Below, one piece after another: positions 8,431-42,404 of a DNA stretch of 46,671 nucleotides (positions within the stretch are counted from its first letter, which is position 1; each line of letters starts with the position of its first letter). The DNA comes from Candidatus Woesearchaeota archaeon (GTDB lineage: Archaea > Nanobdellota > Nanobdellia > Woesearchaeales > JACPBO01), in the NCBI GenBank assembly GCA_016180285.1, contig JACPBO010000005.1, positions 1 to 46,671 on the forward strand, in the 5' to 3' direction. The position numbers were made by a program, and so were the translations under genes. Below the pieces are notes generated by a model. That model did no database searches. It was not told where the DNA came from and worked only from the letters and a program-made list of their open reading frames with translations.

Positions 8431-9372
8431 ATGGCTGATGCAAAGCTTGTAAAATACATAAAAGAGCAGCTGAAAAGAGGGTACACAGCAGATCAGGTTA
8501 AAAGCTACCTTCTTAATTACGGCTATAATATAAATTCTGTAAACGAGGCGATTGACCAGGCAGCCAGCAGAAAGGCGAATTTCATGCCGCTGCTGATCAT
8601 AATATCTGTTCTTATTGTAATCGGGCTTGCAGCCTATTTTTTAATAACAACGCTTGAAAAAAAGCCTATTTCCGAGCAGCCTGGCTATATTCCGCCAACG
8701 CAGCCAACTATACCGACAACTCAGCCAACCACAACAACGCAGACAACTACCCCGATAATTCCTCCAACTAAGCCAACTACATTGCCTACAACCACTCCGA
8801 CAACACAGCCGCCAGCAACGCCGACACCCAAGCCAACACCAGGCATTACAATCGAGAAAATAAAAGAGATGGCAAAAAGAAGCCCTGATGATGCTGCAGA
8901 CAACTGCATAAAATTAGAGGATTCAAGGGACATTGATGACTGCTATAAAGCAGTTGCTGAAACAGCCAACAGCAGCGTTTATTGCAGAAAAATAGCTAAA
9001 GTGTTTTCAAAGGATTCCTGCTATGTTACATTTATTTTAATAGGCGACTACAGCATGTGCGGCGATATAACTGATTCTTATTATAAAAACAGCTGTGAAA
9101 CTTTGAAGAAGCTGGAGCTGACGCAGCAGCTTATCGCAGAAAACAGGACAAGCGAGGTTGCGGAGATGTATAATATAACAATAACTGCTTCTAAAAGCAA
9201 GCTTGACAGGATCATAGATTATGTTAACGAAGGCAAAACTAATGAGCAGATTGCAACAACATTGAACGACGAGCTGACTCCTTCTTATAATAATGTTCTG
9301 AACACAATAAGAAATGCAGTTGCTGAAGGAAAAACAAAGGACGAGATAAAAACGATGATTGAGGGCGGTTAA
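8431..9372 (+). CDS. Membrane-anchored protein with Thr/Pro-rich linker, 313 aa
   Basis: Domain order: a short helical domain (residues 1-48, with YIKEQLKRGYTADQVKSYLL), one transmembrane helix (about 50-72), a Thr/Pro linker of about 60 residues (repeated PTTQPTT-like units, about 85-145), then an outside helical region with six Cys (about 150-235), and finally two more helical units (LDRIIDYVNEGKTNEQIA and LNTIRNAVAEGKTKDEIK). The cytoplasmic and the C-terminal helical units share the pattern 'hydrophobic-x-x-G-x-T-x-x-Q/E-I', as in short helix-turn units that mediate oligomerisation. There is no signal peptide, so N-in/C-out topology is inferred. The linker would be a spacer through the surface layer. 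The gene overlaps the 3' end of the ancestral PIN gene by 4 bases. Function unknown. Confidence 0.8.
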   Translation: MADAKLVKYIKEQLKRGYTADQVKSYLLNYGYNINSVNEAIDQAASRKANFMPLLIIISVLIVIGLAAYFLITTLEKKPISEQPGYIPPTQPTIPTTQPTTTTQTTTPIIPPTKPTTLPTTTPTTQPPATPTPKPTPGITIEKIKEMAKRSPDDAADNCIKLEDSRDIDDCYKAVAETANSSVYCRKIAKVFSKDSCYVTFILIGDYSMCGDITDSYYKNSCETLKKLELTQQLIAENRTSEVAEMYNITITASKSKLDRIIDYVNEGKTNEQIATTLNDELTPSYNNVLNTIRNAVAEGKTKDEIKTMIEGG

Positions 9373-9938
9373 GATTCGAGAGAGCCGAACATTTTAACAA
9401 GATCTTCGGTAGAATAAATGATTACTTTCATTTGTTTTTCTTTTAACATTTTATCTTTGCTTCAAATAGGGCATTTTAATTTTAAAGCCAAAGCAAAATA
9501 ATCTGCATCTTGTCAAAAACCACCCATCATAGATGGGTGGCATGTAGTTACGTTCCATCGCATCAGGTGGAGGTGGTTTTTGAGCATGCTCAGAATTTTC
9601 CACATACAAAAAAGGTTGGCTTTCTGCCACCAGTCAAAGACTGGATGGAAAATTCTGACATTTTTATCTGGGCTGATCTTTTCGGCTTCAGTGATATATT
9701 TTGCTGTTTCCTCATTCGGAACTGTCTTTATTTTCTTTTTCAGTATATCCATCAATTCATCGAAATCTTCATTTGTTCTCTCAGTTTTCTCAGATATTGC
9801 TTCTTTATACTTATCGAATTCTTCAAATATGAACTCAGGTGCAAAAAGATGCAAATCTTCTTCAAATATAATCTCTTCTGTTTTTCCTTTCTTAATCAAA
9901 ACAGAAAATAAGATGTTTGCATCAATTACTAAATCCAT
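9369..9938 (-). pseudogene. PIN-domain (VapC-like) toxin gene interrupted by palindromic element and a stop
   Basis: The ATG at 9938 follows the antitoxin stop by one base. The first 92 codons encode a typical PIN start (MDLVIDANILFSVL with the first catalytic Asp, then PEFIFEEFDKY with the conserved Glu) ending in SPDK. At 9660 the frame runs into a 150-bp palindromic element (9511-9660), which ends translation at 9513. Beyond the element the rest of the PIN domain is present from 9510 to 9369: DADYFALALKLKCPI, a TGA, then SKDKMLKEK and IIYSTEDLV. Removing 9511-9660 joins the halves in frame as SPDKKDADYF, including the third catalytic acid. The TGA stands where VapC proteins usually have Trp (CPIW), one base change from TGG. 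The restored protein would be 139 aa, a normal VapC length. As it stands the toxin is inactive. Confidence 0.85.
9511..9660 (-). repeat. Double-hairpin palindromic element, copy 1 (150 bp)
   Basis: Plus-strand structure: TGTC end; long stem TCAAAAACCACC / GGTGGTTTTTGA enclosing an apical hairpin (CCCATC-ATA-GATGGG); central GCATGC; second long stem TCAGAATTTTCC / GGAAAATTCTGA enclosing an apical hairpin (CCAGTC-AAA-GACTGG); GACA end. A 22-base core at 9574-9595 recurs exactly at 35464-35485 and with one change at 42007-42028. It is inserted in the PIN gene without a visible target duplication. Its orientation relative to the host gene is the same as in the other two copies. No transposase is present in the window. 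Confidence 0.9.
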
Positions 9939-9939
9939 C

Positions 9940-10164
9940 TTAGTTGGGGTGCCTTCTCTTTGCAAGATTTCTATTAAGTTCCCCGCCCCATTTCAGGGCA
10001 TCTTCTTCTGTAATTGTGCTTTTTGCTTTAAACTTTTTAATAAACTCCAAATCATTGATTTTTTCATCAAAGGCCTCTCTGGCAACAGCACTCCAGTTTA
10101 TTTCTGCAAATAAGTCCATTTTCTGCTTCAATTCCAGCGGCACCGATAATGTTACATTTACCAT
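9940..10164 (-). CDS. VapB-like ribbon-helix-helix antitoxin, 74 aa
   Basis: Small DNA-binding antitoxin. The N-terminus VNVTLSVPLELKQKMDLFAEINWSAVAREAF fits a ribbon-helix-helix fold: a beta strand followed by two helices. The Trp-Ser-Ala-Val-Ala-Arg helix is typical of archaeal VapB-type antitoxins paired with PIN toxins. The acidic/basic C-terminal tail (about residues 40-74) would wrap the toxin. A Shine-Dalgarno GGAGGG at 10171-10176 lies just before the ATG, and an AT-rich TATA region is at about 10216-10224. The toxin start follows the stop by one base, so the two were an operon; with the toxin broken this is now an orphan antitoxin that may still regulate itself. Confidence 0.85.
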   Translation of the reverse strand: MVNVTLSVPLELKQKMDLFAEINWSAVAREAFDEKINDLEFIKKFKAKSTITEEDALKWGGELNRNLAKRRHPN

Positions 10165-32813: not shown

Positions 32814-33041
32814 ATGGGCTTCAAAATGGTGGAAATTGTTGGAGAAGACGTATTCAGGAAACTAGAGTGGAGAATTGTTGATCATGAATACAGGTCCTTA
32901 ATACGTGTTTCTTCAGAAAGGATTCATGGCTGCACAGAATGCATCTACCACCTGCCTTCTTATGGAAATATAACAGTAGATGCAAAAAATAGCTTTGAGG
33001 CTATGAGGGGCCTGTGTTCTGCTTTAAAATATATTAAATAG
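32814..33041 (+). CDS. Small unknown protein, 75 aa
   Basis: No family recognised. Compact alpha/beta composition with a Cys pair (HGCTECIYHL, CxxC spaced by Thr-Glu) and one more Cys near the end. ATG codons at 32814 and 32826 are both possible; the TATA-like ATATTTAAAAT near 32783-32793 is about 30 bases before the first. The stop lies inside the 3' end of ppsA on the other strand (8-base convergent overlap). Gene-like codon use supports it, but function is unknown. Confidence 0.6.
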   Translation: MGFKMVEIVGEDVFRKLEWRIVDHEYRSLIRVSSERIHGCTECIYHLPSYGNITVDAKNSFEAMRGLCSALKYIK

Positions 33042-35526
33042 GTCTTGCCTTTTTATTTAGTTGTTTTTCCTTTTCAGAAATCTTCAATATCATCTTCAAA
33101 ACACTGTCGGGGTTTAGAGAAATTGAATCAATGCCGCATTCTACAAGAAACTGCGCAAATTCGGGAAAATCAGATGCTGCTTGCCCGCATATGCCTATTT
33201 TCCTGCCTTTCTCCTTTGCGATCTCGATCACAATGCTAACTAATCTTTTGACTGCTTCATTCCTTTCATCATATATCGAGGAAACCAATTCAGAATCTCT
33301 GTCAAGGCCCAATGTCAGCTGCGTCAGGTCATTAGAGCCAATGCTGAATCCATCGAATATCTCAGAGAATTTTTCAGCCAATATGACATTTGAAGGAATT
33401 TCACACATCACATAAACCTGCAAATGATTTTCTCCCCTTTTCAATCCGTTTTTCTCCATTTCTTTCAGAACTTTTTTTCCTTCTTCTATTGTCCTGCAGA
33501 AAGGAATCATGACTTTTAAATTTGTCAGACCCATTTCATCCCTTACTCTTTTGATTGCCCTGCATTCCAATGCAAATCCGTCTTTATAATTTTCAGAGTA
33601 ATACCTTGATGCGCCTCTCCAGCCGATCATCGGGTTTTCCTCATGCGGCTCAAACTGCTTTCCTCCAATAAGATTCGCATATTCATTTGTCTTGAAATCA
33701 GAAAATCTCAGTATGACGTCTTTCGGATAGAATGCTGCTGCGAGCATTGCTGCTCCTTGCGCAAGCTTGTCTACAAAATAATCTGCCTTGTTTTTGTAAT
33801 TTGATGTAAGCTCTTCTATCATCTGCTTTGCGTCTTCATCTTTAAGTTTTTTAAAATTGAGCAAAGCAAGAGGATGAATTTTAATGTAAGAATTTATTAT
33901 GAACTCCTCTCTTGCCAGGCCAACGCCATCATTAGGGATGAATGAAAGCTCTAAAGCCTGGTCAGGCTCTGCAATGTTCATCATTATTTTTGTTTTTGTT
34001 TTTGGAATTGTTTTGAGGTCAACAACCTTTTTTTTAAAATCCAGCAATCCCTCATATATAAAGCCAATATCACCTTCTGCGCAGCTCGCTGTGATATTCT
34101 GGCCTGTTTTTATTTTTTCAGTTCCGTTGTTTGTGCCGACAATGCACGGAATTCCCAGTTCACGGGAGATGATTGCTGCGTGGCATGTGCGCCCCCCTCT
34201 ATTAGTTACAATCGCAGACGCTATTTTCATTATCGGCTCCCAATCTGGATCTGTCATATCTGTGACTAAAACATCTCCTTGCTTGAACCTTGAGATTTCA
34301 TGGACATTTTTTATCACATTTGCTCTGCCTTGTCCGATCTTTTCTCCAACAGAATGGCCTGTCACAATTATTTTGCCTCTTTTTTTCAGCTCATAAATTT
34401 CATATATGTTCCTGTTTTTCTGGCTCTGCACTGTTTCAGGCCTTGCCTGCACAATGAAAAGCTTGTCTGTTTCGCCGTCCTTTGCCCATTCTATGTCCAT
34501 TGGCTTGTGATGGCCTGCTTTCCTGCTGTAATGGTCCTCAATTACGCAGCCCCATTTTGCCAATGCCAATATTTCCTTGTCTGTCAAAACAAAATTTCTT
34601 CTTTCCTCTTCTGTTGTCGGAACATTCTTTGTTGTCTTATTTCCGCCTTCATAATAAATCATTTTTATCTTTTTCTCGCCAACAGCTTTGCTGATTATTG
34701 CATTACGGCCCTGCTTTAATGTCTGCTTGAAAATGTAATATTCATCGGGATTGACTGCTCCCTGCACAACATTTTCTCCCAATCCGTAAGATGCATTTAT
34801 CAGAACAACATCCCTGAATCCTGTTTCAGTGTCTATTGTAAACATAACCCCTGCTGAAGCCTTGTCGCTTCTGACCATTTTTTGGATTCCAATTGAAAGG
34901 TAAACTTTGAAATGATCGAATTTTTTATCCACTCTGTAGCTTATCGCCCTGTCTGTGAATAAAGAGGCGAAACATTTTTTGCATGCATCTAGCAATTGAG
35001 AATGGCCTCTTATGTTGAGATAAGTTTCCTGCTGGCCTGCAAAGCTTGCATCCGGCAAATCTTCTGCTGTGGCTGATGACCTTACTGCAACATCGCAGTT
35101 CTTGCCGTATTGTTTGCACAGCTTATCGTAAGCTTTTGTTATTGCGCGCTTTAATTCATAAGGAAACTCTGCTGATTTGATTAATTCCCTTGTCTTTTGG
35201 CCTCTTTCTGACAGGTCTTTTATGCTCGTTGTTTTCAGCCCTTTGAAAATTCTTTTTATGTCATCGCCTATTTTTTCTGTTTTCAGGAAATATCTGTAAG
35301 CATAGGCTGTTACTGCAAATCCATTCGGTATATTGATGCCTTTCTTTGTAAGCTGCCTGTACATTTCTCCTAAAGAGGCATTTTTGCCTCCGACAAGCGG
35401 AACATCCTCTATGCCAAGATCATTAAACCACAGAATAAAGGATTTTAACCTGTCAAAAACCTTTGGTTTTTGAGCATGCTCAGAAATCCTTTGAATTTCT
35501 GACATGTTTGAACTATGCTTATCCAA
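33034..35526 (-). CDS. ppsA: Phosphoenolpyruvate synthase with in-frame element insertion near its N-terminus
   Basis: Converts pyruvate, ATP and water to phosphoenolpyruvate, AMP and phosphate; it opens gluconeogenesis. Order: nucleotide-binding domain (LVGGKNASLGEM ... AVRSSATAEDLPDASFAGQQ), phospho-His domain with 'GGRTCHAAIISRELGIPCIVG', and PEP/pyruvate domain ending 'GICGQAASDFPEFAQFLVECGIDSISLNPDS'. 830 aa is slightly longer than the usual ~790. The likely start is TTG at 35526, with GAGGTGG 5 bases upstream. Codons 8-25 come from the 54-bp palindromic element 35451-35504; without it the protein would begin MDKHSSNRLKSFILWFNDLG, close to the usual start of the family. The extension is likely a flexible tail that does not harm catalysis. 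Confidence 0.96.
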   Translation of the reverse strand: MDKHSSNMSEIQRISEHAQKPKVFDRLKSFILWFNDLGIEDVPLVGGKNASLGEMYRQLTKKGINIPNGFAVTAYAYRYFLKTEKIGDDIKRIFKGLKTTSIKDLSERGQKTRELIKSAEFPYELKRAITKAYDKLCKQYGKNCDVAVRSSATAEDLPDASFAGQQETYLNIRGHSQLLDACKKCFASLFTDRAISYRVDKKFDHFKVYLSIGIQKMVRSDKASAGVMFTIDTETGFRDVVLINASYGLGENVVQGAVNPDEYYIFKQTLKQGRNAIISKAVGEKKIKMIYYEGGNKTTKNVPTTEEERRNFVLTDKEILALAKWGCVIEDHYSRKAGHHKPMDIEWAKDGETDKLFIVQARPETVQSQKNRNIYEIYELKKRGKIIVTGHSVGEKIGQGRANVIKNVHEISRFKQGDVLVTDMTDPDWEPIMKIASAIVTNRGGRTCHAAIISRELGIPCIVGTNNGTEKIKTGQNITASCAEGDIGFIYEGLLDFKKKVVDLKTIPKTKTKIMMNIAEPDQALELSFIPNDGVGLAREEFIINSYIKIHPLALLNFKKLKDEDAKQMIEELTSNYKNKADYFVDKLAQGAAMLAAAFYPKDVILRFSDFKTNEYANLIGGKQFEPHEENPMIGWRGASRYYSENYKDGFALECRAIKRVRDEMGLTNLKVMIPFCRTIEEGKKVLKEMEKNGLKRGENHLQVYVMCEIPSNVILAEKFSEIFDGFSIGSNDLTQLTLGLDRDSELVSSIYDERNEAVKRLVSIVIEIAKEKGRKIGICGQAASDFPEFAQFLVECGIDSISLNPDSVLKMILKISEKEKQLNKKARPI
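35451..35504 (-). repeat. Double-hairpin palindromic element, copy 2 (54 bp, minimal)
   Basis: Plus strand: TG, stem TCAAAAACC-TTT-GGTTTTTGA, central GCATGC, stem TCAGAAAT with ATTTCTGA around a 7-base loop, CA. It has the same ends and core as copies 1 and 3 but lacks the large inner loops. It is 18 codons long with no stop in the ppsA frame. The 22-base core at 35464-35485 is identical to copy 1. Confidence 0.85.
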
Positions 35527-41494: not shown

Positions 41495-41878
41495 ATGACA
41501 ACAGTTTTATGCTTTGGAAATGAGTTTTTAAAGAAAGACCGCCTTGCTAAAAAAATAGCTGATGAAATAAAGTTAGATGGCTTTGAATTCATCAAAAGCG
41601 ACAATGTCGACGATATCTTGAACTATGCAAATTCTGATGAATTATACATCATGGATGTTGTTGAAAATATTGAAAAAACAATGCTGATAAAAAATATTGA
41701 CGAGCTAAAAAGCAGCAAAATATGCACGCTGCATGATTTTGATCTCGGGTTTTATCTGAAGCTGATGAAGGAGATCGGGAAAATAAAGGAAATACGGATC
41801 ATAGGAATACCGCAGAAAGGGGATGCTGGGGAGATTAAGAAAGAAATAGCTGAGATTTTGAAAAAAGAAAAAGGCTAG
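41495..41878 (+). CDS. hycI: Hydrogenase maturation protease (HycI-like)
   Basis: Nickel-dependent endopeptidase that trims the C-terminus of the hydrogenase large subunit, 127 aa (short but typical for archaeal forms). Seen: 'CFGNEFLKKDRLAKK' with Asp 15, 'LYIMDVVEN' with Asp 54 and 'CTLHDFDLG' with His 80, the three nickel ligands of the family. Its presence matches the large subunit, which keeps a short C-terminal tail after DPCISCSTH. The stop overlaps the stop of the ancestral HTH gene by CTAG. Confidence 0.9.
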   Translation: MTTVLCFGNEFLKKDRLAKKIADEIKLDGFEFIKSDNVDDILNYANSDELYIMDVVENIEKTMLIKNIDELKSSKICTLHDFDLGFYLKLMKEIGKIKEIRIIGIPQKGDAGEIKKEIAEILKKEKG

Positions 41879-42404
41879 ATATTTTTGGCTGAAACTGCTA
41901 CTGCGCCAACTGATGATGCTGAATGATAGCGAACTTCGCTTTCCTCTTCTGTCAAAAACCACCAGTCAGAGACTAGTAGAATGTTACTGCGTTTTACCGC
42001 ATCAGGTGGTTTTTGAGCATGCTCGGAATTTTCATGATTCGTGCAAAAAAAGCGAAGCTTACCACTAGTCACAGACTAGATGGAAAATTCCGACATTTTA
42101 TGGCGTTTTCTCTTCTGACAACAGAATCCACCACAGCCCAATAAAAATCTATAAATTTTGTAACTATTGGATTTTTAAAGTTTAATTTGTACATCTTTGC
42201 CTTTCCAACAATTCTTGTTTGAACGACCATCTTCTTTTCCCTGAACTCCTTAAAGATCCTTTTTAATGTAGTATACCCTACTTCAGAATATCTAGCAATA
42301 TCCTTCATCGAATAGTCATATTCTGAATGCACTATTAAAAAGCTCCATATTCTGTTTTTTGGGCTGTCTCCCTGCTCTTTTAAAAATACTGATTTTGGCA
42401 TCAT
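41875..42404 (-). pseudogene. Winged-helix regulator gene interrupted by palindromic element
   Basis: The ATG at 42404 opens a winged-helix regulator (YDYSMKDIARYSEVGYTTLKRIFKEFREKKMV, then the wing KAKMYKLNFK), a paralogue of the gene at 20499. After 103 codons the frame enters element copy 3 at 42095 and gains CRNFPSSL before a stop at 42071-42069. The rest of the old C-terminus lies beyond the element, from 41949 to 41875 (EEESEVRYHSASSVGAVAVS to a TAG). Removing 41950-42095 joins the halves in frame with no other change. The DNA-binding part is complete, so a truncated 111-aa protein may still work. Confidence 0.82.
41950..42095 (-). repeat. Double-hairpin palindromic element, copy 3 (146 bp)
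   Basis: Plus strand: TGTC, stem TCAAAAACCACC / GGTGGTTTTTGA, central GCATGC, stem TCGGAATTTTC / GAAAATTCCGA, GACA. The second stem has changed A to G on one arm and T to C on the other relative to copy 1, keeping the pair. It also keeps apical hairpins (GTC-AGA-GAC and CTAGTC-ACA-GACTAG) and part of the inner sequence of copy 1 (CACCTGATGCG on the minus strand). Confidence 0.9.

What the first reader, a model, noticed from the sequence alone, without database searches (positions are those of the whole stretch)
41950..42095. A new family of double-hairpin palindromic elements with base-pair covariation
Three copies (9511-9660, 35451-35504, 41950-42095) share TGTC/GACA ends, two back-to-back long hairpins around GCATGC, and a 22-base core (one change in copy 3). 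In the second long stem copy 1 has an A-T pair where copy 3 has G-C, changed on both arms; this keeps the stem while the sequence drifts. Inner loops differ but keep small apical hairpins. Copy 2 is reduced to the bare stems. This is selected or mechanistically required structure, not chance repetition. No matching transposase gene is in the window.
Basis: seen in the sequence. Interest (0 to 1): 0.85.

Follow-up and report, generated by a model that had tools for sequence, protein, structure and literature searches.

The report
Mobile double-hairpin repeat in Woesearchaeota
The three matching DNA hairpin pairs in this window belong to a previously undescribed family of tiny mobile elements, 52 to about 250 bases long and carrying no gene, that has spread through dozens of Woesearchaeota genomes and appears to insert as single-stranded DNA, although the enzyme that moves it has not been found.

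Summary
Each copy is TGTC-hairpin A-GAGCATGCTC-hairpin B-GACA. A covariance model finds about 25 copies in this genome and about 37 in a congener. The core motif occurs in 82 of 193 genomes of the order, with almost no control hits, but in only 2 of 172 genomes of other orders. Stems covary with Watson-Crick changes and about 1% G-T. Loops run from about 3 to over 100 nt.
The element is mobile. Between congeners, copies are 90-99% identical in unrelated flanks. Copies interrupt a transposase gene, a PIN-domain gene in the window (copy 1) and other copies, with clean junctions and no target duplication. Insertion is polar: in the congener 27 of 27 oriented copies are followed by T(T/A)T on the hairpin-B side. 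Neighbouring copies share orientation (63:24), and on a 731-kb contig orientation switches once, not far from cdc6.
This is the behaviour of IS200/IS605 and REPIN elements that insert into lagging-strand ssDNA. Membership is not shown: the tag is not GTAG, none of the 50 Y1 loci read carries these ends, and 7 of 17 high-copy genomes, this one included, have no Y1.

The parts
41950..42095 (+). Copy 3, full-length element: hairpin A 41950-42014, core GAGCATGCTC 42015-42024, hairpin B 42025-42095; between convergent ORFs (41495-41878 + and 42069-42404 -, which overlaps its end)
   Evidence: CM 132 bits, E 1.9e-26
42096..42099 (+). TTTT flank of copy 3 on the hairpin-B side (target-derived T-W-T)
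9511..9660 (+). Copy 1, full-length element: hairpin A 9511-9581, core 9582-9591, hairpin B 9592-9660; interrupts a PIN_2-domain gene
   Evidence: (CM 144 bits, E 3.5e-29)
9661..9965 (-). N-terminal piece of the interrupted PIN_2 gene (profile positions 1-88 of 133, up to the element border)
   Evidence: E 7.6e-18
9371..9509 (-). C-terminal piece of the PIN_2 gene on the other side of copy 1, with an internal TGA (weak match to profile positions 94-116)
   Evidence: E 0.052
9661..9664 (+). TTTT flank of copy 1 on the hairpin-B side
35451..35504 (+). Copy 2, minimal form: hairpin A 35451-35471, core 35472-35481, hairpin B 35482-35504; 54 bp, read through as 18 codons of the PEP synthase ORF on the other strand
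   Evidence: CM 52 bits, E 1.5e-8
33034..35526 (-). PEP synthase-like ORF (PPDK_N, PEP-utilizers) whose N-terminal extension contains copy 2 in frame

Best explanation
This is a non-autonomous mobile element with two back-to-back hairpins. Shown from sequence: it has exact ends TGTC..GACA; it inserts cleanly with no target-site duplication; the target is polar (TT^TWT on the hairpin-A-first strand, i.e. NAWA^ immediately 5' of TGTC-hairpin B on the other strand); and its orientation along a contig is not random. Inferred: on the strand that reads hairpin B first, the element is cut and joined as folded single-stranded DNA. Hairpin B acts as the left end, next to the 5' target, and hairpin A as the right end. 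Insertion goes into the lagging-strand template at the replication fork, as for IS608/ISDra2 and as proposed for REPINs. The enzyme would be a Y1 HUH (TnpA-type) transposase supplied in trans and often lost afterwards. The recognised parts are the outer 9-12 bp of each stem plus TGTC/GAGCA; the loops are free, and so are shortened, expanded and invaded by further copies.
For: Multiplicity and spread. Mobility: elements 90-99% identical between congeners with unrelated flanks; PAN-gene 3' flank occupied in G000, empty in G052. Clean junctions: G061 Y1 gene split as CTTCATT|element|TATTTGTAGG; PIN_2 gene split at the borders of copy 1; nested copies in L002/L011 and L232 compared with uninterrupted paralogues. 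No TSD: matches of 3-9 nt at chance. Polarity: 27/27 T at +1, 27/27 T at +3, only T/A at +2 on the hairpin-B side in the congener, weak signal on the other side. Orientation: neighbours concordant 63:24 (p 1.7e-5; 33:12 at 20 kb or more, p 0.0012); one switch explains 21 of 24 on the 731-kb contig (permutation p 0.0017); split at cdc6 10:2 against 3:9 (p 0.012). Y1 genes enriched in carriers (41/82 against 28/111, p 5e-4); TnpB not.
Against: No Y1 in this genome at E<=1 nor in 7 of 17 high-copy genomes. None of the 50 Y1 loci read has these ends nearby (one holds an element as an insertion). The Y1 association is not corrected for phylogeny, and the rarer IS110 is also enriched (16 genomes, p 0.003). 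Origin position is inferred only from the cdc6 gene; GC skew was uninformative. The best switch point on the large contig (382-420 kb) is not exactly at cdc6 (275 kb). At 5 kb minimum spacing concordance weakens (43:23, p 0.009). The hairpins lie at the very ends, not 10-20 nt inside as in IS608.
Confidence: 0.6

Rival explanations
1. Mobile, but moved by another enzyme that also leaves no duplication (for example an IS110/DEDD recombinase, or an unrecognised nuclease). The hairpins are recognised as dsDNA or cruciforms.
For: No TSD. IS110 (PF02371) is found in only 16 genomes but enriched in carriers: 8 of 36 genomes with four or more pattern hits against 8 of 157 (p 0.003). Many carriers lack Y1.
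Against: 12 of 17 high-copy genomes, including this one and its congener, lack IS110. Replication-strand-like orientation is not expected of dsDNA recombination.
Confidence: 0.15
2. No dedicated transposase: copies spread and change by DNA-polymerase template switching and hairpin priming at forks, with quasi-palindrome correction keeping the two arms complementary.
For: Stem changes are nearly all Watson-Crick, with about 1% G-T. Tips differ yet stay complementary between paralogous nested copies (L187 and L196). A loop is inverted (TAC/GTA) between two otherwise near-identical composites (L189 and L191). Orientation bias fits fork events.
Against: Exact ends, clean junctions and a fixed T-W-T target point to a site-specific cutting enzyme. 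Hairpin A and B interiors keep their identity and position across genera (461 and 529 same-type matches, 6 swaps).
Confidence: 0.12
3. Functional RNA or terminator/attenuator repeat kept by selection at the RNA level.
For: Mostly intergenic; strong folding; T-run after hairpin B in many copies.
Against: All four gene arrangements are used (convergent 4, divergent 6, tandem 19 of 29). Loops are unconserved and wobble pairs nearly absent. Copies lie inside genes. No Rfam match.
Confidence: 0.06
4. An ordinary MITE of a DDE transposon.
For: Short, multi-copy, inverted terminal repeats.
Against: No target duplication at any length from 3 to 9 nt; two separate hairpins with independent stems instead of one terminal inverted repeat pair.
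Confidence: 0.03

Closest known systems
REPINs / BIMEs (REP doublets mobilised by RAYT, PMC3116915)
   Same: Short non-autonomous pair of inverted hairpins with tetranucleotide tags at the outer ends; mostly intergenic; compensatory stem changes; proposed single-strand, IS200/605-like movement.
   Different: Tag is TGTC, not GTAG/GGAG; each hairpin folds on its own around a GCATGC palindrome; order-restricted archaeal hosts; no adjacent RAYT; loop size ranges from about 3 to over 100 nt; a defined polar insertion target is seen.
CGTC-tagged REPs (Di Nocera et al. 2013, PMC3733652), including RPE-4/RPE-6 and dRS3
   Same: C/TGTC tag at one end of a hairpin, frequent dimers, some inside genes, and no dedicated transposase known.
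   Different: Described from bacteria with 8-9 bp stems, 4-5 nt loops and a CCA tail; here the tag C is paired with the G of GAGC, the tail is GAGCA, and the dimer is fixed with tags outward.
IS200/IS605 family (IS608, ISDra2) and palindrome-associated miniature relatives in haloarchaea (PATEs)
   Same: End hairpins, target immediately 5' of one end, no target duplication, lagging-strand bias.
   Different: No transposase gene inside or beside; hairpins are terminal, not subterminal; mini forms of 52 bp are smaller than known derivatives (own knowledge).
Mitochondrial double-hairpin elements (Paquin et al. 2000, Allomyces; repetitive hairpin-forming elements of sponges, PMC2800124)
   Same: Two tandem hairpins with variable sequence, mobile, no coding capacity, sometimes inside genes.
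   Different: Organellar; no evidence here of common descent; insertion polarity and orientation have not been described for them to my knowledge.

Membership tests
REPIN/REP-RAYT | GTAG/GTGG tetranucleotide 5' of the hairpin foot | tested here: not met
   100 of 100 distinct elements begin TGTC at both outer ends; TGTC was required by the search
REPIN/REP-RAYT | Inverted pair of hairpins as the mobile unit | tested here: met
REPIN/REP-RAYT | Cognate Y1 transposase gene flanked by the same repeat | tested here: not met
   none in own genome; 50 Y1 loci read in relatives, none with these ends
IS200/IS605 derivative | No target-site duplication and a target 5' of the left end | tested here: met
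IS200/IS605 derivative | Orientation bias with replication (lagging strand) | tested here: inconclusive
   concordance p 1.7e-5, cdc6 split p 0.012, but origin not mapped
IS200/IS605 derivative | Ends shared with an autonomous tnpA element | tested here: not met
CGTC-REP superfamily | 8-9 bp stem, 4-5 nt loop, unpaired CGTC/TGTC tag, CCA tail | tested here: not met
   tag C paired, tail GAGCA, loops about 3 to over 100 nt
DDE-transposon MITE | Target-site duplication | tested here: not met
Mitochondrial double-hairpin elements | Common descent with the organellar elements | not testable with these tools
   architecture only is shared

The most novel reading that the evidence does not exclude
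A DPANN-specific class of self-folding ssDNA parasite that no longer depends on a dedicated transposase. It spreads at replication forks through host or transient enzymes, its hairpin tips renewed by strand switching, so that the only heritable information is two stem feet and a target.
Probability: 0.2. Interest if true: 0.8.

Novelty: new variant of a known kind. Interest (0 to 1): 0.62.

Why it matters
Mobile palindromes have been studied mainly in bacteria and mitochondria, and no description in Woesearchaeota was found in the papers searched. If confirmed, this family would provide a natural ssDNA-transposition record in an uncultivated archaeal lineage, a marker of replication direction in fragmented genomes, and a test case for how REP-like elements persist where no transposase is present.

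Tried and rejected
Rfam on the window and on copy 3: nothing. IMG/VR exact pattern, phage and plasmid BLASTN: nothing, so no viral or plasmid carrier found. Gene-bearing (autonomous) version: searched for distant matching arms around single-sided cores and around 50 Y1 loci: none. The Y1 element of the congener (L241 type) has different ends. TnpB association: none. GC skew for the origin: follows gene strand, uninformative. Empty sites by whole-flank comparison of the two congeners: mostly too diverged; only the PAN site was informative. My first orientation lists (17) left out ambiguous copies; the model-based lists (24) replace them. Papers: no prior description in Woesearchaeota or other DPANN found.

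Full report
WHAT IS THERE. Each reads 5'-TGTC-hairpin A-GAGCATGCTC-hairpin B-GACA-3'. The C of TGTC pairs with the G of GAGC in hairpin A, and hairpin B mirrors this, so the element is an inverted pair of hairpin units meeting at a GCATGC palindrome. As ssDNA the copies fold 4 to 7 standard deviations better than shuffles. Hairpin A almost always starts TCAAAAA or TCAAGAA; hairpin B starts TC[A/G]GAA.

HOW MANY AND WHERE. A pattern search finds at least 16 cores in the 1.33-Mb genome. A covariance model built from 20 full-length copies of 14 genomes finds about 25 loci in this genome and about 37 in a congener, G052. Across the order, 82 of 193 genomes carry the 19-nt core pattern, against only a few hits for the reversed control; one genome, G050, holds more than 40 copies. 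In a phylum-wide sample 57 of 199 genomes of the own order but only 2 of 172 genomes of other orders are positive (my count of the rows), one of them (G285) with seven copies of a variant. Named genome records with the full two-hairpin architecture are nearly all Candidatus Woesearchaeota, with single Pacearchaeota and Nanoarchaeota records, so the host is most likely a Woesearchaeote (inference). No copy was found in IMG/VR, phage or plasmid collections or Rfam.

STRUCTURE AND COVARIATION. One hundred distinct elements were collected. Hairpin A spans 19-175 nt and hairpin B 19-98 nt. The outer stems covary: for example hairpin-B pair 12 is T-A, G-C, A-T or C-G in different genomes and is intact in 27 of 27 one-per-genome copies, against 44% after shuffling. 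RNAalifold on 20 copies finds 12 pairs with two-sided changes. Caution: copies were chosen for having at least 7 stem pairs, so percentage paired is biased upward; the variety of pair types is not. G-T pairs make up about 1% of cells over the first ten pairs, which fits DNA-level complementarity better than RNA-level selection (inference). Tips turn over between paralogues: the same nested insertion in L187 and L196 has AAATCCTTTGGATTT in one and AAATCGCTTTGCGATTT in the other, and the loop of a nested hairpin is TAC in L189 and its complement GTA in L191. Full-length interiors are homologous across genera and keep their place: 461 A-to-A and 529 B-to-B matches in the same orientation, 6 swaps.

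MOBILITY. Between G000 and G052 elements are 90-99% identical while flanks are unalignable or about 70-86% identical. The end of the PAN gene carries an element in G000 and none in G052, although the sequence further downstream differs. Clean insertions: in G061 a 52-nt copy splits a Y1 transposase gene, CTTCATT|element|TATTTGTAGG, where the conserved coding sequence needs CTTCATTTATTTGTAGG. Copies nested in other copies (L002, L011, L232) leave the host copy intact on both sides when compared with uninterrupted paralogues such as L233. In the window itself, copy 1 splits a PIN_2 gene: profile positions 1-88 end at base 9661, and the remaining piece, weakly matching positions 94-116 and already carrying a TGA, begins at 9509 just beyond the other border. 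The pieces were searched apart and not joined with the tools. Copy 2 is read through in frame as 18 codons of a PEP synthase N-terminal extension, reminiscent of Rickettsia palindromic elements.

TARGET AND POLARITY. There is no target-site duplication: matches of 3 to 9 nt between the flanks are at chance. The hairpin-B side is followed by T-[T/A]-T: 27 of 27 at +1 and +3 in the congener, 91% and 87% in all 100 (which contains some misoriented copies). The hairpin-A side shows only a weak T preference. The nested and gene-splitting cases show that these T's belong to the target. Read on the other strand, the target NAWA lies immediately 5' of TGTC-hairpin B, as the target lies 5' of the left end in IS200/IS605.

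ORIENTATION. Neighbouring copies on a contig share orientation 63 times and differ 24 times (p 1.7e-5; 33:12 for neighbours 20 kb or more apart, p 0.0012). On the 731-kb contig of G052 one switch explains 21 of 24 copies (permutation p 0.0017); left of cdc6 the ratio is 10:2, right of it 3:9 (p 0.012). If the origin lies at cdc6, the hairpin-B-first strand is the lagging-strand template, as known for IS608 and ISDra2 (PMC6006769). The origin is not mapped and GC skew gave no help, so this is suggestive. Gene context does not explain it: copies sit in convergent, divergent and tandem gaps alike.

THE MISSING ENZYME. Y1 transposases occur in 69 of 193 genomes and are enriched in carriers (41 of 82 against 28 of 111, p 5e-4), IS110 in 16 genomes (also enriched), TnpB not enriched (not corrected for phylogeny). 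But this genome has no Y1 even at E<=1, 7 of 17 high-copy genomes have none, and none of the 50 Y1 loci read has the element's ends. The mobiliser is therefore unidentified.

COMPARISON. It works most like a REPIN (PMC3116915) or a miniature IS200/IS605 derivative, and shares with CGTC-REPs (PMC3733652) a C/TGTC tag and the absence of a dedicated transposase. It fails the GTAG tag, the flanking-RAYT test and the CGTC-REP stem, loop and tail description, so it is not filed as a member of either. Mitochondrial double-hairpin elements are an architectural parallel only. No earlier description was found in the papers searched.

VERDICT. A real, new, lineage-restricted family of mobile double-hairpin elements: mobility close to certain, single-strand lagging-template insertion likely (0.6), enzyme unknown.

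Noticed in passing
L002, L011, L236, L232, L189, L191, L277: A second type of right half exists: TGTC-hairpin-GAGCA (or GATCA) followed by a hairpin with AATT..AATT feet (or CACTC..GATG in L277) instead of TGCTC..GACA. The first half is constant, the second variable.
   Followed up: partly
L189 and L191 (G050), nested hairpin near locus base 1345: Two near-identical 175-nt composites differ by inversion of a 3-nt hairpin loop (TAC against GTA), a flip-flop-like change.
   Followed up: partly
L241, L242, L243, L245, L277, L279 (L244 with ATGATAT): A Woesearchaeota Y1 element (about 200-aa transposase) repeatedly starts right after ATGACAT, resembling the TGACA|T edge of the hairpin element; the enzyme's target and the element's end may be related.
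   Followed up: partly
G285 (another order of the class): Seven copies of a variant whose core ends TCCGAA in a lineage otherwise free of the element: a probable recent horizontal acquisition.
   Followed up: no
L001:120-215: Degraded relic resembling part of an element just upstream of the PAN gene, which also has an intact element 12 bases after its stop.
   Followed up: no
G050:C18, G158:C4, G119, G046 and others: IS110-type recombinases are rare in the order (16 of 193 genomes) but five of those genomes are among the 17 highest-copy carriers.
   Followed up: partly
L019, around 1570-1620: Tandem duplication of the last part of an element and its AT-rich flank (GTGGAAAATTTTTGACATTTTTATATATAAA twice).
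   Followed up: no
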